The notes below the pieces were generated by a model. It searched no databases, had not been told where the DNA came from, and worked only from the letters and a program-made list of their open reading frames with translations. A program made the position numbers and the translations under genes. A DNA stretch of 16,206 nucleotides from Granulicella sp. (lineage in GTDB: Bacteria > Acidobacteriota > Terriglobia > Terriglobales > Acidobacteriaceae): positions 1-16,206 of the forward strand of contig PKWK01000232.1 of the NCBI GenBank assembly GCA_003133205.1, written 5' to 3'. Each line of letters starts with the position of its first letter. Within the stretch, counting starts at the first letter, position 1. Positions 1,189-16,206 of the stretch are shown here, piece by piece.

Positions 1189-1623
1189 TTATATGGTGGG
1201 TGGGGCATCCATGCGATGCGCGTATGGTGTCGACGAAGAGACCCAGGGACAGGAGTCGAGCCGCTTCTTTGCTGGATTGTTGAGGATGTAGAAGGTTTGG
1301 TTGCGGAGGTCTTCCTCATCGACCACGCGGTGGGCGTGGTAGCCGTCCTGCCATATGTCGCCTGAGAAATCCCAGCGTACGGCGAAGGAGAATCCGCCCT
1401 TGATGAGTTGGGCGCAGCGTTCGATGGCCATGTCCGGGGCGGGAGTGAGAAGGATGTGGACGTGGTCGGGCATGACGACGAAGGCGTGAAGTTGGAATTT
1501 ATCGGCGTCGCGATAACGGAAGAGGGTGGCGATGAAGAGTTCGGCAGTTGCGGTGCGTTGGAAGAGGCGACGACGTTGGTGAGTTATGGCAGTGAGGGCG
1601 TAGGTCTGGGGTTTGAGGCGCAT
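1189..1623 (-). CDS. REP-associated tyrosine transposase (RAYT, IS200-like Y1 HUH family), copy A
   Basis: A 144-residue protein of the Transposase_17/Y1 family, single-strand DNA nucleases that act at foldback palindromes. The HUH-type histidine pair is at residues 54-56 (M-P-D-H-V-H-I-L-L). A W-Q-D-G-Y-H-A-H segment lies at 91-98 and F-Y-I-L-N-N-P at 111-117. Tyr95 and Tyr112 are the candidates for the catalytic tyrosine, and I cannot decide between them by eye. The frame stays open upstream to 1812, but the start is the ATG at 1623: it matches copy B exactly, and the extension would translate the palindromes. The gene appears intact and differs from copy B at about eight residues (R18L, D41G, M65I, W84K and others). 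It stops with TAA beside the left palindrome pair. Confidence 0.9.
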   Translation of the reverse strand: MRLKPQTYALTAITHQRRRLFQRTATAELFIATLFRYRDADKFQLHAFVVMPDHVHILLTPAPDMAIERCAQLIKGGFSFAVRWDFSGDIWQDGYHAHRVVDEEDLRNQTFYILNNPAKKRLDSCPWVSSSTPYAHRMDAPPTI

Positions 1624-1642
1624 GGTGGGAGGGCGTGTCCCA

Positions 1643-1704
1643 GGGGCTAAAGCCCCTTGTTTCTCGGTGGCCGGTGATGCCCTAAAGTCCGGGCCTATCT
1701 CAGA
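1643..1704. repeat. Right palindrome pair of cassette A, outer arm decayed
   Basis: The inner hairpin GGGGCT-AA-AGCCCC (1643-1656) is perfect and lies about 20 bp upstream of the transposase ATG. The outer palindrome (1679-1694) has lost four bases (GGAC) from one arm compared with the intact equivalents at 1125, 1862 and 2418. The remaining GTCCGGGC can no longer form the 9-bp stem. Confidence 0.75.
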
Positions 1705-1807
1705 AGCAAAAGCAAAGGCAGGAGAGAGTGTACTCCGTGGCTTTGGTGCTGCGGTCGATTCGTGGTCAGGTGCGCGTAATGGGCTGAATACCGAAATGGA
1801 CACCGAC

Positions 1808-1849
1808 CCCACTCATGCGCGATGAGACTGCGCATGAATGGGGCACCCG
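1808..1849. repeat. 42-bp hairpin repeat, copy 2
   Basis: Identical over 42 bp to 400-441 and in the same orientation, with the same 13-bp arms (one mismatch) and nine-base loop. It sits in the spacer between the two transposase cassettes, eight bases before the homology of cassette B begins. The two copies therefore bracket the beta-barrel gene plus cassette A as direct repeats. Confidence 0.85.
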
Positions 1850-1927: not shown

Positions 1928-2362
1928 TTATACGGTGGGCGGGTTGTCCATGCGATGCGCGTATGGTGTCGACGAAGAGACCCAGGGATAGGCGTCGAGC
2001 CGCTTCTTCGCGGGGTTATTGAGGATGTAGAAGGTTTGGTTGCGGAGGTCTTCCTCATCGACCACGCGGTGGGCGTGGTAGCCGTCCTGCCATATGTCGC
2101 CTGAGAAATCCTTGCGTACGGCGAATGAGAATCCGCCCTTGATGAGTTGGGCGCAGCGTTCGATGGCGATGTCGGGTGCGGGGGTTAGCAGGATGTGGAC
2201 GTGGTCGGGCATGACGACGAATGCGTGAAGTTGGAATTTGCCGGCGTCGCGATAACGGAAGAGGGTGGCGATGAAGAGTTCGGCAGTTGCGGTGCGTTGG
2301 AAGAGGCGAAGACGTTGGTGAGTTATGGCAGTGAGGGCGTAGGTCTGGGGTTTGAGGCGCAT
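1928..2362 (-). CDS. REP-associated tyrosine transposase (RAYT, IS200-like Y1 HUH family), copy B
   Basis: A 144-residue paralogue of copy A at roughly 94% identity and of identical length. The HVH metal-binding pair (residues 54-56), the W-Q-D-G-Y-H-A-H segment (91-98, Tyr95) and the Y-I-L-N-N-P segment (112-117, Tyr112) are all conserved. The start is the ATG at 2362, which opens the frame with MRLKPQTYALTA; the gene ends with TAA at 1930-1928. The known activity of E. coli TnpA-REP is cleavage and rejoining of single-stranded REP hairpins, and the flanking hairpins are the obvious substrate here (inference). The substitutions outside the motifs look conservative enough for both copies to be functional. 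Confidence 0.9.
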   Translation of the reverse strand: MRLKPQTYALTAITHQRLRLFQRTATAELFIATLFRYRDAGKFQLHAFVVMPDHVHILLTPAPDIAIERCAQLIKGGFSFAVRKDFSGDIWQDGYHAHRVVDEEDLRNQTFYILNNPAKKRLDAYPWVSSSTPYAHRMDNPPTV

Positions 2363-4024: not shown

Positions 4025-4798
4025 ATGGCACTGATGAAGACATCGAATCCGGCACTGGGCGACAAGACGTTTACCGACCTCGCCAAATCCGGCCAGTTCG
4101 GCGACCTCGCCGACACCGCCCGCATGACGCTCAGCGGCACGGTCAACAAGACCGGCATCCTGCTGCTCTGCTCCATCGCGACGGCAGCGTACACGTGGCG
4201 CCTGTTCCTTCAGGCGGCGGGCGACATGTCGGCCGTGGGACCGTTGGTGCTCGGCGGGCTGATCGGCGGATTCATCTTCGCGATGGTCACCATCTTCAAG
4301 AAAGAATGGGCGCCGGTCACCGCGCCGATTTATGCGCTGCTGGAAGGCCTGGTGCTGGGCGGAATCTCGGCCGTGACCAACGCGCGCTATCCGGGCATCG
4401 GGATCCAGGCGGTGAGCCTGACCTTCGGCACGCTGTTCGTGCTGCTGCTGGCGTATAGCTCGGGGCTGATCAAGGTGACGGACAAGATGCGGCTCGGGAT
4501 CGTCGCGGCGACCGGCGGCATTGCGGTCTTCTATGTGCTGGAACTGCTGCTGGGATTCGCCGGCATCCACTTCACGCAGATCAACGGCAATGGCGCAATC
4601 GGGATTGGGTTCAGCCTGTTCGTGGTGGCCATCGCATCGCTGAACCTGGTACTGGACTTCGACTTCATCGAGCAGGGCGTCGCGGTTGGCGCTCCGAAGT
4701 ATATGGAGTGGTACGGCGCGTTCGGAATCATGGTGACGCTGGTGTGGCTGTACCTGGAGATTCTGCGGCTGCTCTCGAAGATGCGCAGCCGGAACTGA
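4025..4798 (+). CDS. Bax inhibitor-1/YccA-like integral membrane protein
   Basis: A 257-residue protein with a soluble N-terminal stretch (about 1-42) and about seven hydrophobic segments, near 44-62, 72-91, 97-116, 127-146, 156-178, 190-212 and 230-250. It ends with a short basic tail. The block L-V-L-D-F-D-F-I-E-Q-G-V followed by A-P-K-Y-M-E-W-Y-G-A-F (208-233) is the signature of the bacterial Bax1-I group (PF12811-like) of the TMBIM superfamily. Acidic residues in this segment correspond to those that gate calcium leak in the studied homologue YetJ. The role here is unproven; membrane stress or ion leak is the usual guess. GGAGAG six bases before the ATG supports the start. It stands alone, transcribed away from the uvrB remnant. 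Confidence 0.88.
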   Translation: MALMKTSNPALGDKTFTDLAKSGQFGDLADTARMTLSGTVNKTGILLLCSIATAAYTWRLFLQAAGDMSAVGPLVLGGLIGGFIFAMVTIFKKEWAPVTAPIYALLEGLVLGGISAVTNARYPGIGIQAVSLTFGTLFVLLLAYSSGLIKVTDKMRLGIVAATGGIAVFYVLELLLGFAGIHFTQINGNGAIGIGFSLFVVAIASLNLVLDFDFIEQGVAVGAPKYMEWYGAFGIMVTLVWLYLEILRLLSKMRSRN

Positions 4799-5079: not shown

Positions 5080-6531
5080 TTACCGAAGCTGCCGACGCAG
5101 TTCGCGCAGGCACGTGTCCGCGTCGATGACGATGAGTTCGATGCCGGCGATCTCCGCGAAGTCTTCGAGATGCTCTGTCGTCAGTGCCTGGCTGAAGCCG
5201 GTGTGGTGGGCTCCCCCGGCATAGATCCAAGCAGCAGCCGCTACTTTGAGACTCGGTTTCGGCAGCCATACCGCACGCGCGACAGGAAGATTCGGCAACT
5301 CCTCATCCGGCTGAACGACGTCGACTTCGTTGACTACCAGCCGGAAGCTATCTCTCATTTCCACAAGAGACGCGACCACGGCAGGCCCGCTGGGTGCAGT
5401 GAAGACAAGCCTCGCGGGATCGGCTTTGCCGCCAATCCCTAGCGGATGCACTTCGAGCGACGGCTTCCCGGCAGCGATCGACGGGCAGATCTCGAGCATG
5501 TGGGAACCAAGGACTTTCGGAATGCCGCCGAAGTCATAGGTGTAGTCCTCCATGAAGGATGTACCACCTTGCATCCCGAGCGCCATTACCTTCATGATGC
5601 GCACGAGTGCTGCAGTCTTCCAGTCGCCTTCGCCGGCAAAGCCGTAGCCGTCTGCCATCAGGCGCTGCACCGCTATGCCGGGAAGCTGGTCCAAACCGTG
5701 GAGATCCTGGAACGTGTCGGTGAAGGCGCCGAAGCCGCCCTCTTCGAGAAACGCCCGCAATCCTAGTTCGATTCTGGCGGCGCTGCGAAGTGAGTCGGGC
5801 CGATCGTGGTTCTCCGCGATGGTGTAAGCGTCGCGATATTCCGCGAGCAGCTTATCGACCTCTGAGTCGCTGAACTGATTCATGCGATCGACGAGATCGC
5901 CCACGCCGTATCCGTTGACGCTGTAGCCGAGCTGCGCCTCCGCCGAGACCTTATTGCCTTCGGTGACGGCGACGTCGCGCATATTGTCTCCGAAACGCGC
6001 CACCTTGAGGTTCTGCGATTCGTGCCAGCCTGCCGCAGCACGGGTCCATGTGCCGACCTCTGCGACTGTATCGGCGTCTTGCCAGAAGCCGACGACCACT
6101 TTCCGCGGCAGTCGCAGCCGCGCCGTGATGAAGCCAAACTCGCGATCGCCATGGGCCGCCTGGTTCAAGTTCATAAAGTCCATGTCGATGGAGGACCATG
6201 GGAGCTCGCGATTGAACTGCGTATGCAGATGCAGGAAAGGTTTTGCCAACGACTTGAGGCCTGCGATCCACATCTTCGCCGGCGAGAAGGTGTGCATCCA
6301 GAGCACAAGGCCGATGCAGTTTCTGGCGTTGCTCGCCTCCCGGCAGAGCTCGCGCACCTGCTCGCTGGTGGTCAGCACAGGCTTAAAGACAATCTTGACC
6401 GGAATCGCGCCTTCGGCATCGAGAGAGGCAGCAATCCTCTGCGAGTTTTCTGCAACCTTCGCGAGAGCCTCGGCTCCGTAAAGGTGCTGACTCCCAGTAA
6501 CGAACCATACTTCGAGGTGATCCAAGTTCAT
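5080..6531 (-). CDS. araA: L-arabinose isomerase
   Basis: A 483-residue protein that aligns by eye along its length with AraA (E. coli about 500 residues). It converts L-arabinose to L-ribulose in the cytoplasm using Mn2+. The N-terminus [19 protein letters not shown] is diagnostic. The catalytic and metal residues can be placed: Glu301 (F-A-G-E-G-D-W-K), Glu328 ([10 protein letters not shown]), His344 (L-G-S-H-M-L-E) and a His of the pair 442-443 (G-G-A-H-H-T-G-F-S). These correspond to E306, E333, H350 and H450 of E. coli. AAAGGA eight bases before the ATG supports the start. It lies 53 bp downstream of the permease on the same strand and is the last gene of the presumed operon. No araB or araD follows it. 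Confidence 0.96.
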
Positions 6532-6584: not shown

Positions 6585-8123
6585 TCATCCGGAAGTGCTC
6601 TGTGCCGTCACCTGGTCTGCCTGTGAACTGGCTCTGCGCAAGAGCAAATACACCGGAACTCCGCTCAGCACGATCAGCAACCCAGGCCATGTGGTCGCCG
6701 TTCGATAGGCGAACAGCATCGCCAGAACGATCGAGGAGCCGGCGATGTAGAGAGCCGGCAGCCAGGGATATCCCCAGCAGCGATACGGCCTGGGCGCATC
6801 GGGCCGCGTGTACCGCAAGCGGAACAGGCCAACCACCGTGAGGATGTAAAAGATGAGGGCAGCGGAGATCACGTAATCGAGCAGGTTGCTGTAGAGATTG
6901 CCGTAGGTTTGCGTTGCGGCGTTATAGGTGCGTGGCAGGACGAGTAGCAAAGACCAAAGGCATTGGATAGCGAGTGCCCATCCGGGTACCCGGGCACGGT
7001 TGAGCGTGCCGGCACGGCGGAAGAAGAGGCCATCCTGAGCCATCGCGTAGCAAGCGCGCCCGCCGGCGAGAGTGAGAGCATTGACCGTGCCGAAGGTGGA
7101 GACCATGATGAGGCAGCCCATCGCAAGCTTGCCAATTCCCGGCAGGATGGTATCAACGACCAGGGTTGCGACGCGGTCACCCGGCGCAGTCTGAATGGCC
7201 TCGACCGGAAGTACGGCGAGGTAGCAGAGGTTGCAAAGCAAATAGAGTGCAATGACGATGAAGGTGCCAATGCCAAGGGCAAGCGGCAGGTTGCGCCTTG
7301 GGTTGCGGACCTCGCCGGCGACGAACGTAATGTCGTGCCACGAGTCCGCAGAGAAGAGCGAGCCGGTCTGCGAGACACAGAGTGCGACCAGGAGTCCGAA
7401 GCCGGTCGTGGCGTCGAGAGTGCGAATCAGGGCGACATGCCGGGGGTGCCATGCATCGCTGAAGTTGGCATGGAAGATTGAGGGGTTGCGCAAGAAGGCG
7501 AGGGCGCCGAGACCCAGGAGCACGACTATGCCGGCGAGCTTCGCAACGGTGAAGATGTTTTGGATCAGCTTGCCCCAGGAGACGCCGCGGGTGTTGATGA
7601 AGCACGTCAGCAGGATGATGGCGAGGGCGAGGGCCTGGGCGGTGGAGAGCGACAAAGCGTAGCTGGGAAGGATATGGATGGGCGCGATGAGATAGTGGCT
7701 TTCGTTGACGGACGGGAACAGGACGCCGCTGAAGCGGGCAAAGGCGATGGCTACGGCGGCGATGGAGCCCGTCTGGATGACGGTGAGGAGTGTCCAGCCA
7801 TAGAGAAAGCCGAGCAGAGGTGAAAAGGCTTCTCGAAGGTAGACGTACATGCCTCCCGCGGAGGGCATCATAGCGGCTAGCTCTCCATAACTGAGAGCAC
7901 CGAAGACGGTGAGGACGCCGGTGATGATCCAGGCGACGAGCAGCCAGCCAGCCGAACCGACCTGCCGGGAGATCTCCGCGCTAACGATGAAGATGCCGGA
8001 GCCTACCATGATTCCGGCGACGATCATGATGGAGTCGAAGAGGCCGAGCGCTTTGCGGAACTCGGTGGGTGATTCGCCCGTTTCAGCGGCCTCTATGAGG
8101 TTCAAATCTGTTGCGAGCTGCAT
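6585..8123 (-). CDS. APC-superfamily permease (amino acid transporter-like) in the arabinose operon
   Basis: A 512-residue, very hydrophobic protein with about 12 membrane helices and the APC-superfamily TM1 signature G-S-G-I-F at 41-45, preceded by A-G-I-M-V. The cytosolic N-terminus (about 1-24) is followed by the R-K-A-L-G-L-F-D entry into TM1. By family it is an amino-acid/polyamine-type cation symporter or exchanger. Its position between a beta-L-arabinofuranosidase and arabinose isomerase suggests it imports the arabinose product, or hydroxyproline or glycosylated hydroxyproline; this is inference. The frame is open upstream to 8480, but that extension is antisense-like sequence within the GH127 3' end, and GGAGG nine bases before the ATG at 8123 fixes the start. 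It lies 79 bp after the GH127 stop with a hairpin in the gap. Confidence 0.88.
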   Translation of the reverse strand: MQLATDLNLIEAAETGESPTEFRKALGLFDSIMIVAGIMVGSGIFIVSAEISRQVGSAGWLLVAWIITGVLTVFGALSYGELAAMMPSAGGMYVYLREAFSPLLGFLYGWTLLTVIQTGSIAAVAIAFARFSGVLFPSVNESHYLIAPIHILPSYALSLSTAQALALAIILLTCFINTRGVSWGKLIQNIFTVAKLAGIVVLLGLGALAFLRNPSIFHANFSDAWHPRHVALIRTLDATTGFGLLVALCVSQTGSLFSADSWHDITFVAGEVRNPRRNLPLALGIGTFIVIALYLLCNLCYLAVLPVEAIQTAPGDRVATLVVDTILPGIGKLAMGCLIMVSTFGTVNALTLAGGRACYAMAQDGLFFRRAGTLNRARVPGWALAIQCLWSLLLVLPRTYNAATQTYGNLYSNLLDYVISAALIFYILTVVGLFRLRYTRPDAPRPYRCWGYPWLPALYIAGSSIVLAMLFAYRTATTWPGLLIVLSGVPVYLLLRRASSQADQVTAQSTSG

Positions 8124-8145
8124 TCGCTTATGCCTCCAGATACAG

Positions 8146-8174
8146 CAGGCGGGTCCGCTGGTGGGACCCGCCTG
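8146..8174 (-). repeat. Strong intercistronic hairpin between GH127 and permease genes
   Basis: CAGGCGGGTCC (8146-8156) pairs perfectly with GGACCCGCCTG (8164-8174), an 11-bp G/C-rich stem with a seven-base loop, 28 bp past the GH127 stop and 23 bp before the permease start. No U-run follows in the minus-strand transcript, so it is unlikely to be an intrinsic terminator. It is better explained as a 3'-end stabilising or processing element that lets GH127 mRNA accumulate relative to the downstream genes (inference). Confidence 0.7.
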
Positions 8175-8202
8175 AGTTGCAAAGTGCCGGTAAGTCTTGG
8201 GG

Positions 8203-10215
8203 CTAGACGACTCCTTCGTTGCGGACGTAGACGGAGTACCGCTCATCCATGATGAGGTTGAGCGGTATAAGGGTGTGAGTGGGACCGCGACCCTGGGTGC
8301 GGAACTGCAACGGGTAGCGGCGTGTACCTTCAGTCTGTTCGAACCAGATGCCGTCGTCAGCAATCGGGGGCGGGACAGGAGCGGAAGCGGGCGCATTGTT
8401 CGGCCGGCGCTGACCCGGGGAACGAGTGCTGACCGTGGGCATCGGGTATCCGTCGTCGAAGCCGCGGGGACCCGAACCACCGTAGATCATGGAGTTGGTG
8501 AGGCCCTCGCTCCCCTGGCGCACGGCGAGTACGAGCGGACCGTACATCGCGGCCTGGACCTGCTTGTCGTCCGGCGCCTGATCGATGTGAAGCGTCATAG
8601 GGATGTCAATGGTGACGACGTCCCCGGCTTTCCACGGGTGGTTGATTTCGAGATAGGTGGATGGGATGGCAGTGGCAGTCATCGGCGCGCCGTTGACTGC
8701 GACGCTGACGCCCTTGGTTGCCCAATAGGGAACCCGGACTTTAATGGCGGTCGGCTTGGATGGAGCAGCATCCACCGTGAACGTGATGGTCTGCTCGTTG
8801 GGGTATTTTGTCGTCTGGCGGAGTTGCAGGCCACGCTCTTTCCAGTCGAGTTTGGAGGGGATGAAGAGATTGACGTAGACGGACGAGTCATCGTGGAAGT
8901 AGATCGAGTCGTTGAGCTTGGCATACTCCTCGGAGCCCGTACCGGTGCAGCACCAGAAGGCATCGAACTGTGTGCCAAAGGTCTTATACATGCCGGGGCG
9001 CAGCGAGACGTAATACATCAGCATGCCATTGCGGTCCTGCGTGCCGTAGCGGACGTTGAGCAGCATGCGCTCGTAGTAGTCAAAGTGTTTCGCGTCGGGT
9101 TGCTGTCCGAAGAGATGACGGGTGAGCTTCATCATATTGTAAGAGCAGCAGCACTCCTCGGCGGCGGGCCCGAGTTGGCTGGCTACGCCGTCCGGTTCGT
9201 GCCATCCCTCGCCGTTACTGGTGCCGCCGGTGCAATAACTGTGGTGATCTTTGACGATGCGGTAGAAGTTCTGGGCAATGCTCTGGTAGCGGGTGTCGCC
9301 GGTCAGTTCGTAGCCACGAATCGCGCCAATCATCTTCGGGATATTGGTGTTGGCGTGATTGCCGTTGAGCATGTCCTGGTTGGCTGCAAGGGGCTCGAAC
9401 ATCTTCTTGTGTTCGAAGCGATAGCCCAGGTCGCGGTACTTGGGGTTCCCCGTGATGGCGTAGAGGTTGAAGGACGCCTCATTCATTCCGCCATGCTCGG
9501 TGAGCAGGACGCGCTGCCACTCGTCATCGGAGATGGATTTGGCGTAGGTGTCGGCCCAGTCAGCCATCTTGAGGGCGACGTCGAGGGCCTGCTTGTTGCC
9601 GGTGTGCTCATACATATCGATCATGCCGGCCAAAATCTTATGGTAGGTGTAGAAGGGAGCCCAGACCTTCTGATGGGCGCGGAGTCGGTCGTAGAAGGTG
9701 GCCGGGTATGCGCCAAGGTATCCATCTTTGGCCTGGCACTGAGCGAGAATGGCGACGAGATCGTTGGCCTTGGCGACGATGACCTCGTCCCCGGTACTTG
9801 CATGGACGAAAGCGCACGAAGAGAGGTAATGGCCGACGTAGTGGCCGCGCAACTCACAGTCGGGGGCCTCCCAGCCGCCGATGGGTTCTGCGTCGGAGGG
9901 GATGCCAACGGTGACGCGGAAGTTATGCGCGAGTCGCTCGTTGGGCAGGGAATAGAGATAGCTCCGATTGAGCTCCATCATGTCCTTCCAAAAGCTGGGC
10001 AGGAGACGGACCTGGGTCATGGAGAACGGCTCCGCTTTCCACTTGATCTTGGCGACGGCGGCGCGGGTGAGCGAAACGTTGGCAGTATCTATGCCGCTTG
10101 ACGCCATGGCCTTGCTATCTGCCACGGCCGCTCCGGCTTTCGAAGGCAGAAGAGTTAAGGCGCCTGCAGCGGCTGCACCGCCGAGAAAATGTCTACGTGT
10201 CGGTTTCAGGTTCAT
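8203..10215 (-). CDS. Tat-exported GH127 beta-L-arabinofuranosidase (DUF1680)
   Basis: A 670-residue GH127 enzyme that cleaves terminal beta-L-arabinofuranose, known from HypBA1 on hydroxyproline-linked arabino-oligosaccharides. A twin-arginine signal (T-R-R-H-F-L-G-G at 6-13, hydrophobic to about 30) directs folded export. The (alpha/alpha)6 domain carries the family's unusual Zn-thiolate site: Glu336 (T-S-N-G-E-G-W) as acid/base equivalent of HypBA1 E322, Glu353 and Cys355 (A-A-E-E-C) matching E338/C340, and Cys422-Cys423 (F-W-C-C-T-G-T-G) matching the nucleophile and ligand C417/C418. A beta-sandwich region follows and a low-complexity Pro/Ala segment lies near residues 600-620. GAGG close before the ATG supports the start. 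It is 117 bp downstream of GH43 and heads the permease-araA genes. Family and site assignment are strong; exact substrate is not. Confidence 0.93.
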   Translation of the reverse strand: MNLKPTRRHFLGGAAAAGALTLLPSKAGAAVADSKAMASSGIDTANVSLTRAAVAKIKWKAEPFSMTQVRLLPSFWKDMMELNRSYLYSLPNERLAHNFRVTVGIPSDAEPIGGWEAPDCELRGHYVGHYLSSCAFVHASTGDEVIVAKANDLVAILAQCQAKDGYLGAYPATFYDRLRAHQKVWAPFYTYHKILAGMIDMYEHTGNKQALDVALKMADWADTYAKSISDDEWQRVLLTEHGGMNEASFNLYAITGNPKYRDLGYRFEHKKMFEPLAANQDMLNGNHANTNIPKMIGAIRGYELTGDTRYQSIAQNFYRIVKDHHSYCTGGTSNGEGWHEPDGVASQLGPAAEECCCSYNMMKLTRHLFGQQPDAKHFDYYERMLLNVRYGTQDRNGMLMYYVSLRPGMYKTFGTQFDAFWCCTGTGSEEYAKLNDSIYFHDDSSVYVNLFIPSKLDWKERGLQLRQTTKYPNEQTITFTVDAAPSKPTAIKVRVPYWATKGVSVAVNGAPMTATAIPSTYLEINHPWKAGDVVTIDIPMTLHIDQAPDDKQVQAAMYGPLVLAVRQGSEGLTNSMIYGGSGPRGFDDGYPMPTVSTRSPGQRRPNNAPASAPVPPPIADDGIWFEQTEGTRRYPLQFRTQGRGPTHTLIPLNLIMDERYSVYVRNEGVV

Positions 10216-10253
10216 GTTGCCTCATCTTGCTGGCCGTTTTTCAAGCGTTCTGC

Positions 10254-10272
10254 GGATACAATTTAGAGTACA
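10254..10272. promoter_or_regulatory. Possible operator upstream of GH127
   Basis: On the minus strand, a TGTAC half-site (10272-10268) and GTATCC (10259-10254) are separated by eight bases. This resembles the TATAC...GTATAC dyad in the GH43/DUF5695 divergent region; the shared stretch is ATTGTAT followed by C at the second next base. The match is partial and could be chance. Confidence 0.22.
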
Positions 10273-10332
10273 TAGAAAATCACCTGCGCGTCATTCTTGT
10301 CAACAAAAGGCTGAGGGCGCGAAGCGAAGGAA

Positions 10333-11946
10333 TCATTGTGGCGAGGACGAAGCTGCCGGACACTCTAACTTTGCGTCGCCAGCCGGGGCCAGTTTTTGCA
10401 GCGCGGACAGTGCGACAACCTTTGGGGCGAGTGTCTCCCACTCCTGGACGGCAACCCCGGCGTGCTGCTGACCATCGCCGGAAGCATCGAACACGGCGCG
10501 GAGGCAGCGCGTCGTCACGCGATCGAACTTCACGTCGACAAAGGAACCCATCGTAGTCGGATAGCCGCTCGCGTTCGCGACAGGACGCCATTCGTCTCCA
10601 CTGCGATATTCGAGGTGCCAGGCGGCAGGCGGAGCTACTCCGATGTTCGCACCTTGGCGGTGATCGCTCCAGAACATGATGCGCGAGCCGTCCAGCGTGA
10701 CCGGCTTGGCCCACTCATACTGAATCCACTGGCTGGCGGGGTTGTGCGGCGTCCAACTACCCCACATATCCGGAGGCAAGGGATTCGGCCGGACGATGCC
10801 GTCGTTGAGCGCCTTGATCCAGTACTGGACTGGAACCGGCTCATTGGATGCAGTCGCGCGTGCCGCCGAGGCAATGTTGCGGGTCGGCGCCGCCGGCGGC
10901 CTCGGCTCATGCGTCTGTTTGACCTTAAGCATCCGCGCGGGCGAGACGCTGTCGTCCCACTGCACGGTGTCGATTGCGACACTGCGTCGGAAGTGTCCGC
11001 CTCCCTTGGCGTCGGCGGTGTGATAGATGATGTACCACTTTCCCTTGAACTCGATGACGCCCGGATGCGACGTGGTCGAGGAGACAGGGTCGAGGATGAC
11101 GCCTTGATAGGTCCATGGCCCAAGCGGCGAGTTGGATGTGCCATAGGCAATGCAGGCGTGATAGTTCGCTGGTGTGCAGGGCGAATGGGGGCCTGCCTGG
11201 TTGTCGGCGTAGACCATGTAATAGGTGTCCTTGCGCCGGAAGAGCCACGCTGCCTCGAAGAATCCCGTGAGGCTGTCGACCTTTACTACCTTGCCCTTGG
11301 GCGTCACCATATCCGGTTCGAGCTCGACACCGCGGAGCTGACCGAACGTACCCCAGTACAGATAGACCCGTCCGTCGTTATCAACCATCGCGGTAGGATC
11401 GATGTTTTCGATTTTGTTGGGCTCGGGCAGCGACTGGGAGACGATCGGGCCACTCGGATGAGCATCCTTCCACGGCCCAAGCACACTGTCGGAGACGGCG
11501 ACGCCAATTACGGATGGTTCGGCGTGTTCACGCTTTCCTTCCTCTACCGGTGCAAACAGGTAGAAGCGCTTATCTGGACCCTGAACGATCTGTCCGGCCC
11601 AGGCGTGGCCCGGTTTTGACCAGGCAAACACTGCCTCGGGTCGCAGGATGCCGGGATAGTGCAGCCACTGTTTTGAGGCGACGTTCTTTGTCGCGAACAG
11701 CTGCCACTCGTTCATGACGAAGTTGTTGGCATTGGGAGGCGCCTCGTCGCGTCCGGCGATGATGTACAACTTGTCGCCGACGACGACCGGGGCCGGATCG
11801 GCGGAGTAATAAGAACCGTCGGAGAGTATCGGGTTGCCGGCGCTATGGATGACGCGTGGCTGCGGCTCTTGTGTCAACGCCAGGGAAGATACCGCCAGAA
11901 GAACAAGGATGGCAGCACAAAGGGCGACAAGGCGCACGTTTTTCAA
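10333..11946 (-). CDS. Secreted GH43-family glycosidase with C-terminal discoidin-like domain
   Basis: A 537-residue protein: a Sec signal peptide (about 1-25), a five-bladed propeller GH43 domain (about 38-345) and an F5/8 type C-like beta-sandwich (about 357-506). GH43 landmarks are Asp50 (Y-S-A-D-P-A-P, base), Asp183 (N-I-D-P-T-A-M, pKa modulator) and Glu231 (G-F-F-E-A-A-W, acid), plus Y-H at 308-309 near the usual metal or His site. The family includes alpha-L-arabinofuranosidases, arabinanases and beta-xylosidases; with GH127 and araA beside it, arabinose release is most likely. I take the TTG at 11946 as start because GAGGA precedes it, no in-frame ATG exists nearby and K-N begins a normal n-region. 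A GTG three codons later is the alternative. It lies 117 bp ahead of GH127 on the same strand and is divergent from the DUF5695 genes. Confidence 0.9.
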   Translation of the reverse strand: MKNVRLVALCAAILVLLAVSSLALTQEPQPRVIHSAGNPILSDGSYYSADPAPVVVGDKLYIIAGRDEAPPNANNFVMNEWQLFATKNVASKQWLHYPGILRPEAVFAWSKPGHAWAGQIVQGPDKRFYLFAPVEEGKREHAEPSVIGVAVSDSVLGPWKDAHPSGPIVSQSLPEPNKIENIDPTAMVDNDGRVYLYWGTFGQLRGVELEPDMVTPKGKVVKVDSLTGFFEAAWLFRRKDTYYMVYADNQAGPHSPCTPANYHACIAYGTSNSPLGPWTYQGVILDPVSSTTSHPGVIEFKGKWYIIYHTADAKGGGHFRRSVAIDTVQWDDSVSPARMLKVKQTHEPRPPAAPTRNIASAARATASNEPVPVQYWIKALNDGIVRPNPLPPDMWGSWTPHNPASQWIQYEWAKPVTLDGSRIMFWSDHRQGANIGVAPPAAWHLEYRSGDEWRPVANASGYPTTMGSFVDVKFDRVTTRCLRAVFDASGDGQQHAGVAVQEWETLAPKVVALSALQKLAPAGDAKLECPAASSSPQ

Positions 11947-11989
11947 TAGTCCTCACATTCGAGCCAAGGCTTGCGGCTGCTGCCATATA

Positions 11990-12018
11990 TTTATACGTTA
12001 TTGTATACATTGAATCAG
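11990..12018 (-). promoter_or_regulatory. Candidate GH43 promoter with embedded dyad operator
   Basis: On the minus strand, CTGATT (12018-12013) and TATAAA (11995-11990) are separated by 17 bp, a plausible sigma-70-type promoter about 45-50 bp from the TTG start. The spacer contains the perfect palindrome TGTATACA (12002-12009), which is also the right half of a TATAC-N6-GTATA dyad (11992-12007). Such placement suits repression, for example by a GntR- or LacI-type sugar regulator. Because the region is divergent, the site could also control the DUF5695 genes. The regulator is not in the window. Confidence 0.4.
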
Positions 12019-12042
12019 GGCAGAACTTCCAGGAGACGGTAA

Positions 12043-15000
12043 ATGGATCGACGTCGATTCCTTCAGTGTGGCGCATTATTGGTTCTTCCAGTCTTCGGTC
12101 GCGTCGTCTGTCAGACACCCTCCAACTCTCCCTTTCAGGTGAAGTACACCTCCACCGGTGTCTCCAGCCTACAGAGGGTCCAGGACAAATACGCCACCGA
12201 CTACATTCAGTCCGGTCACGCGCTTGGCGACATCACCATCCGCTATCGCACTGAGGGAACCGGCCCGTGGAACGAAATCTCCGCCGCCAGCCGCGATCTT
12301 GGAGTGGAGGGCAGTGCGCAGAAAGCTGCCGCGGCCTACACCATCAGCCGCGTGCAGCCCACGCTCGTCGGCGGTGCCCGCGTCTCCGCCTCGGTGAGCG
12401 GCCCCGGCGTCCGCGTGCTCAGCGCCGCCTTTGAGCCCTCCACCTCACACGACATCGGCGCGACACGCTTCATCTGGACGGCGAAGAAGGGATCCAGCGA
12501 ATGGGTCGAGTACGACTTCGACAAGCCGCAAACGATCCACTCAGCCGAGGTCTTCTGGGCCGCCGACGCAGGCCGCCGTCTGAACACCAAACTTCCAGTC
12601 GCCTGGAAGATACTTTACAAAGCAGGCGACGATTGGAAGGACGTTCAGCAGGAGAAACAGTCCCCGATCGCCGCCGATATTTTCAACCAGACTACCTTCC
12701 GGCCCGTCACCACCACCGGCATCCGGCTGCAGGTGCAGCTTGAAACCGATGCCACTGCGGGTATGCTCCAGTGGCGCCTCAACGGCGAGCCCGCCCGCAT
12801 GGTTCAACCTGTCGATGATCTTCAGGCCTCCGAGACCTTTCAGCCCTCGGGCGACGCCCTCGTCTGGACCATCGCCCTCCACAACCCCACTGACCACCCC
12901 ATCGAGATCGGCGACCTCTCCGTCGGTCTGCCCATGAATCGTCATTACGTCGGGGATAAGACCGAGACCTACACCAAGCGCGTTATCCAGCACAGCTCCA
13001 TCGCCGGCGACGGCTCATACATCTACTGGATGCGCACCAACGCCGAAGGGCCCTACCTAGTCATGACACCCTTGGCCGGCACGTCGCTCGAGTACTTCCA
13101 GGAGCTGCCCTCCACCAGAATCTACAACGCCTACATTCACTCCTCGGCCAGTTTGGCCGATCTCAAAGCCAAGGGCGGCAACTGGCGCCTGCCCGCCACC
13201 CATCTCGTCTTGGCGCCGAAGGGCAACGCTGGCGACAGCAAGACCTACAGCTTCCGGTTCCGCTGGGCTCCTGATTATGACGGTGTTCGCGAGGTGCTGT
13301 ATCAGGAGAAGCTGTTCGATGTCGCCGTCGTCCCGGGCATGACTGTGCCCACCGACCTCGACGCCGAATTCTCCCTCCACACCCGCAATGCCGGTCTGAA
13401 GATCGATGCCGAGCACCCCGAAAAGACGCAGGTCACCGCCCTTGGCGAACATGGCAAAGACATTCACGTCTACAAGGTCCACTTCAGCAAGCTCGGCGAG
13501 AATATGCTCAACGTCCGCTACGGCGACGGACAGTATCTCTCGCTCGAGTTCTTCGTCACCGAACCCATCGAGACCCTCTTCAAGAAGCGCTCCGCCTTCA
13601 TTGTTTCCCACGAGCAGCACACCGATCCCACCAAGTGGTACAACGGCCTGTTCTCGCAGTGGGACATGAAAAATCACATTCTGCGCAGCCCTGACGATCT
13701 TGACGGCCTGCAATCCTACGCGGTTGCTTGCGACGATACCGAGCTTGGCAAGTCCGCGTTCATCGCCGGCAAGAATATCGTCTACCCATCGCAGAAGGAG
13801 ATCTCCGTGGTCGAGGATTACATCAGCAAGTTTGTCTGGGGAGGCCTGCAGGAGACCACGAAGGAGAAAATTCCTTACGCCGTTTACGGCATCCCGAACT
13901 GGAAGGTCAACCGCGAAAGCCCCGATCCCGGCACCAAGGGCCAGGAACACGTCTGGCGCATCTACGATTATCCTCACGTCGTGGCGATGTACTACAACAT
14001 GTATCGCGTCGCCCAGCTATACCCGGAGACCACCAAATACCTCGACAGCAAGGGCTACCTCGAGCGCGCTTTCGGGACCGCCAAGGCCTTCTTCACCGTA
14101 CCCATGGACCTCATCAAGTGGTCTCCCTATGACACAGGCACCTACAACGAGATCGTCATCCCCGACCTCATCGAGGCGCTCGATCGGGAGGGCCAGCACG
14201 ACGAAGCCGCCTATCTGCGCGGCGAATGGGAGAAAAAGGTCAAATACTTCATCAACGACCACCCGTACCTCTACGGCTCTGAATACCCCTATGACACCAC
14301 CGGCTTCGAGTCCACCGCCGCTCTCGCCAAGTACGCGATGGCTCGCCTGCAGGCACCTAGCGCGACGCCCGGTTCTCAAGGGCTTCCCGGACAGGCGGCC
14401 TTCGCAAGCCAGGTCAAGTACGACGACGCCAAGACCTTCCTCGATGGCCAGTTCGCCCTCAACGTCGCCAGCCGTGGATGGCTTGAGACCGCGTACTATG
14501 ACATGGGCAGCGACTACCGTGGCAACGGCAACATCTCCTACACCCTCAGCTACATGTCGCAGATGGGCGGATGGGGCATCCTCGACTATGCCTACTATCA
14601 GTCACGTGATCCAGCGAAGTACCTTCGCCTCGGCTTTCCCTCCTATCTCAGCTCTTTTGCCCTGATCAACTCTGGCACTGCCGAGTCGAATTACGGTTAC
14701 TGGTACCCCGGCAAAGACAACGACGGGGGAGCAAGTGGCGGCTTCGAGGCTCGACCCTGGGGACGTGCCTGGCTGGGTAATAAGGAGATGGGCCGAGGCC
14801 CCTGGTGGTACTCGGGCGAGATCGAACTTGGCTTTAGCGGAGCTCTTCGCGACGCAGCCACTGTCGCTGTCGACGATCCTATCTTCGGACGCTACGCTTA
14901 CGGCGGCACCATCGCGCAGCACGGCGGCCGCACCGAGGTCGTGCCTCACGACGGTCTGCGCGAGCGCCTCCACATCCTCACCGGCGGCCAGCGCGTGCAC

Positions 15001-15267
15001 CTGCTCCTTGATCGCGATGCTTTCGCCGCGGGGAAGTCGATCTCCTACGACGACGGCCTCGCGCACCTGCGCTTCACGCTTGAAAACCATGCCACCTTTG
15101 CCCACCCGATCGCACTCGCGCTCACAGGTCTTTCTGCCGGAAGTTATCGCTTGGTCGTCGACGGCGTGCGGCGGCCCGCTCAGGCTCCGGTCGATGGTGC
15201 TCTCAACCTTCAGGTGCCCATTTCCGGCAGGCCGGTCACGGTCGAACTTGTACGGGCCGAAAAGTAG
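12043..15267 (+). CDS. Tat-exported DUF5695-like protein with inserted discoidin-like domain, putative glycosidase
   Basis: A 1074-residue protein that begins with a twin-arginine signal (D-R-R-R-F-L-Q). Residues about 30-106 and 252-420 look like two halves of a beta-sandwich, and about 107-251 is a discoidin-like insert (E-W-V-E-Y-D-F-D-K-P, A-W-K-I-L-Y-K-A, L-Q-W-R-L-N-G). The C-terminal half (about 515-960) is helical and aromatic-rich with features of an (alpha/alpha)6 toroid. Acidic candidates for catalysis are D697/E703 (S-P-Y-D-T-G-T-Y-N-E-I-V) and E756 (Y-D-T-T-G-F-E-S-T-A-A-L). It ends with a beta domain of the kind that closes such glycosidases. I assign DUF5695 from memory of the family; function is unassigned to my knowledge. 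AGGAG six bases before AAATG supports the start. The downstream paralogue follows after 37 bp. Confidence 0.8.
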   Translation: MDRRRFLQCGALLVLPVFGRVVCQTPSNSPFQVKYTSTGVSSLQRVQDKYATDYIQSGHALGDITIRYRTEGTGPWNEISAASRDLGVEGSAQKAAAAYTISRVQPTLVGGARVSASVSGPGVRVLSAAFEPSTSHDIGATRFIWTAKKGSSEWVEYDFDKPQTIHSAEVFWAADAGRRLNTKLPVAWKILYKAGDDWKDVQQEKQSPIAADIFNQTTFRPVTTTGIRLQVQLETDATAGMLQWRLNGEPARMVQPVDDLQASETFQPSGDALVWTIALHNPTDHPIEIGDLSVGLPMNRHYVGDKTETYTKRVIQHSSIAGDGSYIYWMRTNAEGPYLVMTPLAGTSLEYFQELPSTRIYNAYIHSSASLADLKAKGGNWRLPATHLVLAPKGNAGDSKTYSFRFRWAPDYDGVREVLYQEKLFDVAVVPGMTVPTDLDAEFSLHTRNAGLKIDAEHPEKTQVTALGEHGKDIHVYKVHFSKLGENMLNVRYGDGQYLSLEFFVTEPIETLFKKRSAFIVSHEQHTDPTKWYNGLFSQWDMKNHILRSPDDLDGLQSYAVACDDTELGKSAFIAGKNIVYPSQKEISVVEDYISKFVWGGLQETTKEKIPYAVYGIPNWKVNRESPDPGTKGQEHVWRIYDYPHVVAMYYNMYRVAQLYPETTKYLDSKGYLERAFGTAKAFFTVPMDLIKWSPYDTGTYNEIVIPDLIEALDREGQHDEAAYLRGEWEKKVKYFINDHPYLYGSEYPYDTTGFESTAALAKYAMARLQAPSATPGSQGLPGQAAFASQVKYDDAKTFLDGQFALNVASRGWLETAYYDMGSDYRGNGNISYTLSYMSQMGGWGILDYAYYQSRDPAKYLRLGFPSYLSSFALINSGTAESNYGYWYPGKDNDGGASGGFEARPWGRAWLGNKEMGRGPWWYSGEIELGFSGALRDAATVAVDDPIFGRYAYGGTIAQHGGRTEVVPHDGLRERLHILTGGQRVHLLLDRDAFAAGKSISYDDGLAHLRFTLENHATFAHPIALALTGLSAGSYRLVVDGVRRPAQAPVDGALNLQVPISGRPVTVELVRAEK

Positions 15268-15304
15268 TTCTCAAAAAGAAGTCAAACTTGATCGAGGTAC
15301 TCCG

Positions 15305-16206
15305 ATGCGCATCGAACCCAATTCGCGAACACCGCGGAATCCCGCTCTTTCGGCTGTCACCGGCATCTGCCATCTCACTGCGGTGCTGGCGCTGACGGCG
15401 ACTCTGGCGCTTTCCTCACAGGCACCCGCACAGGCACCTGCACCCACACAAGCACAAGCACCGGCGCAGGCTCCGCGCGGTCCGCGCGTCTTGCCTCCAG
15501 GCCCGATGATGGATGGCGGCAAGATAACGCTGAAATCCCCCACCCTCAGCGTCGAGCTCCTCAAATATTCTGGAACCGTCGCGCAGTTGAACCCCAAGGC
15601 CGACCCCGCCCTGGACTACACTCCCGGCGACCGCCTCAAGGAGCGCTCTGCCGACACCTTCTACCATCTCGGCGATCTCGATCTGCGTATCCGTGCCGCA
15701 GGCGCTACCGACTGGACCGACATCTCCACCGCCTTCCACCGTGCGCCCGTCGCCGTCACCGCCTCCGACGCCACCCATTTCACCAGCGACGTCACCTCCA
15801 GCCTGCCCGACGGCACGCCCCTCAAGATCGTCCGCACCTGGGCGGTCGAGGGCGGCGACCTTGTCCTCCGCTTCACTGTCAGCAACACCGGTGGTTCCCC
15901 CGTCGAACTCGGCGGCGTCGGCATCCCGATGGTCTTCAACAACATCATGAACGGACGCACGCTCGACCAGTCCTACCGAACCTGCTCGTTCTACGACCCC
16001 TACATAGGCGAGGATGCGGGCTATGTCCAGGTCATCCGCCTGAGCGGCGTCGGTCCTGTGCTGCTCGTCGTGCCCGACGGCCACACCCCCTTTGAGGAGT
16101 GGAAGCCCATCCTCGATCGCCGTGATCGCGAGACCGGTAAAGGCGTCCTCGGCAATGACCCCACACCCCGGGGCACCACCTTCGAAGGCTCGTACGACTG
16201 GATGGT
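15305..16206 (+). CDS. Second DUF5695-like secreted protein, 3' end outside the window
   Basis: From the ATG at 15305 (GAGG at 15294-15297, seven-base spacing) the frame is open to the edge, giving 300 codons. A long n-region and a hydrophobic stretch (about 24-37) form a signal peptide. An Ala/Pro/Gln-rich linker with repeated Q-A-P units (about 39-58) follows. Then comes the N-terminal beta-sandwich (S-P-T-L-S-V-E-L-L-K-Y-S-G-T-V, Y-H-L-G-D-L-D-L-R-I-R, L-V-L-R-F-T-V-S-N-T-G-G-S-P-V-E-L), then F-Y-D-P-Y-I-G-E-D-A-G-Y. These correspond segment by segment with the preceding gene but without the discoidin-like insert. The 37-bp gap and shared strand indicate one transcription unit. The catalytic part is not visible here. 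Confidence 0.8.
   Translation, partial: MRIEPNSRTPRNPALSAVTGICHLTAVLALTATLALSSQAPAQAPAPTQAQAPAQAPRGPRVLPPGPMMDGGKITLKSPTLSVELLKYSGTVAQLNPKADPALDYTPGDRLKERSADTFYHLGDLDLRIRAAGATDWTDISTAFHRAPVAVTASDATHFTSDVTSSLPDGTPLKIVRTWAVEGGDLVLRFTVSNTGGSPVELGGVGIPMVFNNIMNGRTLDQSYRTCSFYDPYIGEDAGYVQVIRLSGVGPVLLVVPDGHTPFEEWKPILDRRDRETGKGVLGNDPTPRGTTFEGSYDWM

What the first reader, a model, noticed from the sequence alone, without database searches (positions are those of the whole stretch)
12043..16206. Tandem DUF5695-like proteins as candidate uncharacterised arabinan-active enzymes
Two exported paralogues with an N-terminal beta-sandwich, the first with an (alpha/alpha)-type aromatic-rich catalytic-looking domain, are divergent from GH43, GH127 and araA. 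Genome context points to action on L-arabinose-containing polysaccharide or glycoprotein. Candidate acidic residues are D697, E703 and E756. To my knowledge this family has no established activity, so this is the best candidate for new biochemistry in the window.
Basis: inference. Interest (0 to 1): 0.75.

Follow-up and report, generated by a model that had tools for sequence, protein, structure and literature searches.

The report
Lyase-fold enzymes for plant hydroxyproline glycoproteins
Two neighbouring, probably exported bacterial proteins of a little-studied family are distant relatives of a known sugar-cutting lyase, and related genes lie near arabinose and hydroxyproline breakdown genes in at least two phyla, so they likely strip sugars from plant cell-wall glycoproteins, though the bond they would cut is untested.

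The parts
12043..15267 (+). DUF5695 protein A (1074 aa): exported-looking, N-terminal beta-sandwich with an inserted F5/8C module, alpha/alpha barrel, C-terminal beta domain
12457..12741 (+). F5/8 type C insert of A (residues 139-233); 29% identical over 86 aa to the C-terminal module of the neighbouring GH43
13558..14862 (+). alpha/alpha barrel region of A (about residues 506-940); Q603, R639, D642, Y643 and Y837 shared with B and PL27; E747/D751/E756 motif shared with B
15305..16206 (+). DUF5695 protein B (core PF18951 subfamily), 37 bases after A, cut by the window end
   Evidence: complete in L001-L004
10333..11946 (-). GH43 protein; its C-terminal F5/8C-like module matches the C-terminal part of HypBA2 (GH121)
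8203..10215 (-). GH127-type beta-L-arabinofuranosidase with TAT signal
6585..8480 (-). amino-acid permease (domain at residues 145-601 of the ORF; true start probably internal)
5080..6531 (-). araA, L-arabinose isomerase (797 bits, cut-off 622)

Best explanation
Genes A and B encode probably exported proteins, predicted to share the PL27 fold, that likely cleave hydroxyproline-linked, arabinose-bearing glycans of plant cell-wall glycoproteins (extensin or arabinogalactan-protein type). Shown by sequence: homology of A to PL27, a conserved residue set (Q603, R639, D642, Y643, Y837 in A), a motif S-E-x3-D-x-T-x2-E kept in A and B (S746 to E756 in A), and genomic linkage to arabinosidases and to hydroxyproline and arabinose catabolism. 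Inferred: GH43, GH127 and GH27 enzymes trim arabinose and galactose, A and B cut a linkage those cannot, peptidases shorten the bared peptide, the permease imports amino acids, and araA plus the hydroxyproline pathway feed both products into central metabolism. The bond would more likely be hydrolysed (with E747, D751 and/or E756 as acid and base) than cut by elimination, because PL27-type elimination needs a uronic acid and neither gene family tested for uronate or rhamnose use is linked.
Against: No biochemistry. The only characterised relatives are Rha-GlcA lyases, and the zero counts for GH88/105 and RhaA are compatible with chance (expected 0.69 and 0.08); at 35 kb GH88/105 is near 2 (expected 1.19). 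Seventeen of 30 DUF5695 genes have no GH127 within 20 kb and 24 of 30 no epimerase, some because contigs end. Caldilineaceae loci mostly show ABC transporters and dehydrogenases instead. One of 7 Bacteroidota B loci (L085) has none of the linked clusters. Adjacent genes also include GH31, BNR/sortilin-like proteins and xylose-isomerase-like barrels. The B profile does not find 5no8 by sequence. A and B may have different substrates. No coordinates were available, so the geometry of the acids was not seen.
Confidence: 0.45

Rival explanations
1. A and B are PL27-like lyases that remove rhamnose-glucuronate type caps from arabinogalactan proteins by beta-elimination, as BACCELL_00875 does.
For: Nearest fold and only PDB profile hit of A is PL27; Q603, R639, [DN]642, Y643 and Y837 are kept in A, B and PL27, and a tyrosine is the proposed PL27 base (recalled from the abstract of the 2017 PL27 paper, not held here). 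AGPs are themselves hydroxyproline-rich (general knowledge).
Against: No enrichment of GH88/105, the group that includes the GH105 acting on the unsaturated product of Rha-GlcA lyase action in an AGP locus (0 of 30 within 20 kb, 2 of 30 within 35 kb; GH105 role seen in passages of PMC8406133, there for GH145); RhaA is in 6 of 20 genomes and never near; A and B lie outside the PL27 clade on long branches and carry the acidic motif in another form.
Confidence: 0.25
2. A and/or B is a glycosidase on free arabinan or another arabinose polysaccharide, with no special tie to glycoproteins.
For: GH127, GH43, GH51 and araA neighbours.
Against: Linkage to hydroxyproline epimerase and to DUF885, and amino-acid permease and S9/DPPIV-like genes in several loci, are not expected for an arabinan locus.
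Confidence: 0.15
3. A or B acts on the peptide side or is a non-catalytic glycan-binding protein of the locus.
For: Peptidase-type neighbours; alpha/alpha barrels with lost catalysis exist (general knowledge).
Against: Deep conservation, 64 invariant columns over 60 sequences, many of them charged or aromatic barrel residues, fits an enzyme.
Confidence: 0.15

Closest known systems
PL27 L-rhamnose-alpha-1,4-D-glucuronate lyase BACCELL_00875 (PDB 5NO8, 5NOK)
   Same: Same two-domain fold over 623 (A) and 621 (B) residues; PL27-type homologues match PF18951 in 23 of 24 scanned; shared Q, R-x-x-[DN]-Y and Y residues.
   Different: Separate clades on long branches (2.3 for A, 3.3 for B, more to PL27; BACCELL_00875 itself is not in the tree, its homologues are); extra C-terminal beta domain in A and B; E747-x3-D751-x4-E756 in A where PL27 has E537-x3-E541; linked genes are for arabinose and hydroxyproline, with no enrichment of rhamnose isomerase or GH88/105.
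Bifidobacterium longum Hyp-arabinoside system HypAA (GH43), HypBA2 (GH121), HypBA1 (GH127)
   Same: GH43 and GH127 enzymes together, F5/8C modules (passages of PMC7263609).
   Different: GH121: 19 of 20 DUF5695 genomes have nothing at 1e-15 and the twentieth a weak partial match. DUF5695 and, in part of the loci, hydroxyproline catabolism are present instead.
GH127/GH146 beta-L-arabinofuranosidases
   Same: Also alpha/alpha barrels; appear in the Foldseek list (GH146 8k7x, TM 0.25 by query).
   Different: A has no PF07944 match up to E 1; structural match far below PL27 (TM 0.49 by query).
trans-4-hydroxyproline degradation pathway (recalled scheme: epimerase, FAD dehydrogenase, DapA-like deaminase, semialdehyde dehydrogenase)
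   Same: Genes of these four kinds lie near A or B in Mucilaginibacter and Granulicella.
   Different: Only the Mucilaginibacter epimerase passes its curated cut-off; the others are assigned by resemblance and neighbourhood. Here the pathway is linked to glycosidases.

Membership tests
PF18951 (DUF5695) | Profile score over the curated cut-off (25.2 bits) | tested here: met
   A 198 bits; B fragment 240.5 bits
PL27 | N-terminal beta-sandwich plus (alpha/alpha)6 barrel | tested here: met
   predicted models; PL27 domain description seen in passages of PMC8377490
PL27 | Detectable sequence similarity to BACCELL_00875 | tested here: met
   Profile of A: 1.8e-13. Not found with A alone up to E 1 nor with the B profile; profile-profile probability 98.99% for A, 98.19% for B, against PL27-type homologues
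PL27 | Falls inside the PL27 clade | tested here: not met
   A, B and PL27-type proteins are three clades, support 100/99, 100/100 and 100/100
PL27 | Catalytic residues of PL27 conserved | tested here: inconclusive
   Shared invariants found, but the paper naming the PL27 catalytic residues is not held
PL27 | Rha-GlcA lyase activity | not testable with these tools
   needs purified protein
PL27 | Genomic link to a GH105 partner (usual, not strictly defining) | tested here: inconclusive
   0 of 30 DUF5695 genes within 20 kb, expected 0.69; 2 of 30 within 35 kb, expected 1.19
GH127/GH146 | PF07944 catalytic-domain match | tested here: not met
   no match for A up to E 1
GH127/GH146 | Closest fold | tested here: inconclusive
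   GH146 and GH127 chains appear in Foldseek below PL27; none among the 50 rows
Hyp-arabinoside degradation system (HypAA/HypBA2/HypBA1) | GH43 and GH127 enzymes in one cluster | tested here: met
   window; L001 and L004 by cluster
Hyp-arabinoside degradation system (HypAA/HypBA2/HypBA1) | GH121 HypBA2 | tested here: not met
   0 of 20 genomes over the (very strict, 3200-bit) cut-off; 1 of 20 with a weak partial match at 1e-15

The most novel reading that the evidence does not exclude
DUF5695 subfamilies A and B are two new carbohydrate-active enzyme families that turned the PL27 lyase scaffold into a deglycosylase for plant hydroxyproline-rich glycoproteins, taking the place of GH121, and they mark cross-phylum loci that eat the whole glycoprotein: its arabinose, its galactose and its hydroxyproline.
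Probability: 0.3. Interest if true: 0.75.

Novelty: new variant of a known kind. Interest (0 to 1): 0.55.

Why it matters
Extensins and arabinogalactan proteins are widespread plant-wall glycoproteins whose microbial breakdown, in the papers seen here, is described mainly for bifidobacteria, a xanthomonad and gut Bacteroides. Loci that join sugar and hydroxyproline catabolism in soil and bog bacteria would show how the whole molecule is recycled, and would give a testable pair of enzymes for removing glycans from hydroxyproline.

Tried and rejected
GH127-like fold: rejected as the nearest one, because PL27 is far better matched. D697/E703/E756 as a catalytic set: rejected as a set. Searching PDB with A alone or with the B profile gave no relative (none up to E 1; one chance hit, E 0.66). 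Papers: 'DUF5695' occurs in one held paper, seen as a passage (a table of velvet-protein domains), which is unrelated; 'PF18951' in none; DUF5695 with 'glycoside hydrolase' in none. Searches for hydroxyproline catabolism or hydroxyproline-rich glycoproteins with extensin, arabinose or GH127 (listings only) showed, among plant papers and others, bifidobacterial and xanthomonad systems and one in silico Latescibacteria paper, whose passages propose HRGP degradation with GH127; none of them names DUF5695. The alignment A2 was meant for B but held GH127 proteins that matched only through the F5/8C module; it was dropped and replaced by A4. CAZy itself is not searchable here, so whether A or B already has a CAZy number is not known.
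Full report
What is there. The window carries, on the minus strand, araA (5080-6531), an amino-acid permease (ORF 6585-8480), a TAT-exported GH127 (8203-10215) and a GH43 with a C-terminal F5/8C-like module (10333-11946), and on the plus strand two DUF5695 genes, A (12043-15267) and B (15305 to beyond the end), 37 bases apart. No whole genome is held for the window. Among 78 loci fetched from genomes, its closest relatives are Granulicella, 82-93% identical over A. In 4 of 4 Granulicella loci (L001-L004) GH43, A, B and a GH27-cluster gene follow in the same order.

PL27 and the Pfam family. A search with stretches of BACCELL_00875 found 675 proteins; of the 120 listed, 107 have PF18951 precomputed. 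Of 24 that I aligned and scanned, 23 match PF18951 at E <= 0.001, and the two whose scores I saw pass the cut-off (29.6 and 31.2 against 25.2). So the claim that the family has no established activity is not right in a strict sense: PL27 enzymes release rhamnose from gum arabic by beta-elimination at glucuronate (passages of PMC8377490). In a maximum-likelihood tree of 43 proteins (20 of the 60 A rows, 12 of 30 B rows, 11 of 24 PL27-type rows), A, B and PL27 are three clades with support 100/99, 100/100 and 100/100, parted by long branches; the letter make-up of many rows differs, which the model does not allow for. Hence A and B are relatives of PL27, not members of its clade.

Candidate catalytic residues. 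Among 60 A-type sequences D697 occurs in 3, E703 in 59 and E756 in 59. In B the column of E703 is glycine. Residues kept in A, B and PL27 by profile-profile alignment are Q603, R639, D642 (N in B and PL27), Y643, Y654, T679 and Y837 in A numbering. A and B share S-E-x3-D-x-T-x2-E with E747, D751 and E756 (60, 59 and 59 of 60 in A; E684, D688 and E693 invariant in 30 of 30 B rows). PL27 has H-E-V-N-Y-E-Q as its consensus there, with E537 and E541 invariant in 24 of 24; the register differs between the A and the B comparison, so which acid equals which is not settled. That a tyrosine is the proposed base of PL27 is recalled from the abstract of the 2017 paper, which is not held. No coordinates could be read, so pocket geometry is untested.

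Genomic context. Of the 78 fetched loci (3 to 24.5 kb, many cut by contig ends), 22 hold a member of the cluster whose representative is GH127; by record title they include Acidobacteria, Bacteroidetes, Planctomycetes, Armatimonadetes, Lentisphaerae and Anaerolineales. Of 109 immediate neighbours of A, 87 were scanned: I dropped 22, mostly very short or very long ones, among them a GH127-cluster gene, two SusC-like-cluster genes, a Caldilineaceae pair and a Granulicella GH43; 15 near-duplicate Caldilineaceae, Granulicella and Botrimarina loci had been left out before. GH127 is the commonest family with 7 of 87, followed by DUF885, GH31 and sortilin/BNR-like proteins with 4 each.

Whole-genome test. 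The 20 genomes were picked by hand from those of the 78 loci, for long contigs or named isolates. Within 20 kb of their 30 DUF5695 genes (22 A, 8 B) I counted GH127 near 13 (expected 1.37), 4-hydroxyproline epimerase near 6 (0.14), DUF885 near 8 (0.49) and araA near 4 (0.16), against GH3 near 1 (1.16), GH88/105 near 0 (0.69) and RhaA near 0 (0.08). Within 35 kb the numbers, in the same order, are 15 (2.33), 8 (0.24), 9 (0.85), 5 (0.28), 2 (1.98), 2 (1.19) and 0 (0.14). For GH127 I merged split matches and left out rows under about 43 bits (105 genes entered, 134 matches tallied); for GH88/105 I left out 7 rows under about 60 bits (60 of 67 entered). By genome, within 20 kb, GH127 is near in 10 of 20 and epimerase in 4 of 20 (12 of 20 have a match to it, 10 over the cut-off). 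The probabilities (3e-9 for epimerase, 1e-8 for DUF885, 2e-5 for araA, about 8e-11 for GH127) treat A and B of one locus, and related genomes, as independent and are therefore too small; the contrast with the GH3 control is the firmer point. The zeros for GH88/105 and RhaA are no significant depletion; they only show no enrichment.

Hydroxyproline. In Mucilaginibacter polytrichastri (L060) the genes beside A include a 4-hydroxyproline epimerase (601.6 bits, cut-off 376), a D-amino-acid-dehydrogenase-like FAD protein, a DapA-like protein and an aldehyde dehydrogenase; the last three are below their models' cut-offs and are assigned by resemblance. Clusters of these four occur together in L016, L020 and L060, and two of the four in L017. 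In G. mallensis, G001 contig 5 at about 91-128 kb (read in L003, L086 and L087) holds a GH127-type gene, an aldehyde dehydrogenase of the same cluster, araA, ribulokinase (550 bits, cut-off 428), GH43, A, B, GH27, two outer-membrane-barrel-cluster genes, a DapA-like gene, two FAD oxidoreductases, an epimerase-like gene (412 bits, just under cut-offs of 442 and 450) and an M1 peptidase. Of 7 fetched Bacteroidota B loci (L079-L085), 5 hold S9/DPPIV-cluster genes, 4 DUF885-cluster genes, 2 the amino-acid-permease cluster also seen in Granulicella, 2 GH127-cluster genes and 1 a GH43; L085 holds none of these. In L041 an ornithine-cyclodeaminase/mu-crystallin protein lies between B and A.

The carbohydrate-binding insert. 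A's F5/8C insert (residues 139-233) is 29% identical over 86 residues to the module of the GH43 next door. Of 17 non-A proteins in the loci and window that match it, that GH43 included, 12 are GH127-cluster (7) or GH43-cluster (5) proteins. The GH43 module itself matches the C-terminal part of HypBA2, whose F5/8C domains are discussed as CBM32 (passages of PMC7263609). In the loci the insert is found in the window's A and in the 4 Granulicella ones (5 of 79), though many of the 120 listed protein relatives carry PF00754.

How it most likely works. The known bifidobacterial route for hydroxyproline-linked arabinans uses HypAA (GH43), HypBA2 (GH121) and HypBA1 (GH127) (passages of PMC7263609). 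DUF5695 loci have in good part GH127 and in some cases GH43, but 19 of 20 genomes show no GH121 at 1e-15. I therefore infer that A and/or B supplies a cleavage in the deglycosylation of hydroxyproline-rich glycoproteins that the neighbours lack, and, since the linked sugar pathway is arabinose and not rhamnose or uronate, that hydrolysis is somewhat more likely than elimination. This last step is inference.

Verdict. The families are a new variant of a known kind (PL27-type fold), with the reaction open.

Noticed in passing
window 1189-1812 (-) and 1928-2362 (-): Two tandem, closely similar Y1 transposase (IS200-like, PF01797) genes, 46.9 and 46.8 bits; the repeat-associated (RAYT-like) type is recalled, not tested.
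   Followed up: partly
window 4025-4795 (+): Bax inhibitor 1-like membrane protein (PF12811, 261 bits).
   Followed up: no
L034 and L035 (Botrimarina), 7763-14602 (+): Plus-strand run of a GH127-cluster gene with the same F5/8C module, an aldose 1-epimerase-cluster gene and A, at the same coordinates in two species.
   Followed up: partly
G007 contig 101 about 167-193 kb; G003 contig 15 about 2.717-2.738 Mb: Clusters of araA with DUF885 plus hydroxyproline epimerase (G007) or GH127 (G003) that lie away from that genome's DUF5695 gene: such loci exist without it.
   Followed up: no
plasmid records H1-H4 (Sphingomonas, Novosphingobium): DUF5695-type proteins at 24-27% identity on plasmid records, three of the four annotated so.
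   Followed up: no
Caldilineaceae loci such as L006, L010 and L013: A-type genes in a conserved setting with oligopeptide ABC transporter genes and, in part, short-chain dehydrogenases, different from the arabinose setting.
   Followed up: partly
60 genomes drawn from the phylum of G004, plus G004 itself: DUF5695 is rare there: 2 of 61 genomes, one of them the centre; the other (G041) shows a B-type gene only.
   Followed up: no
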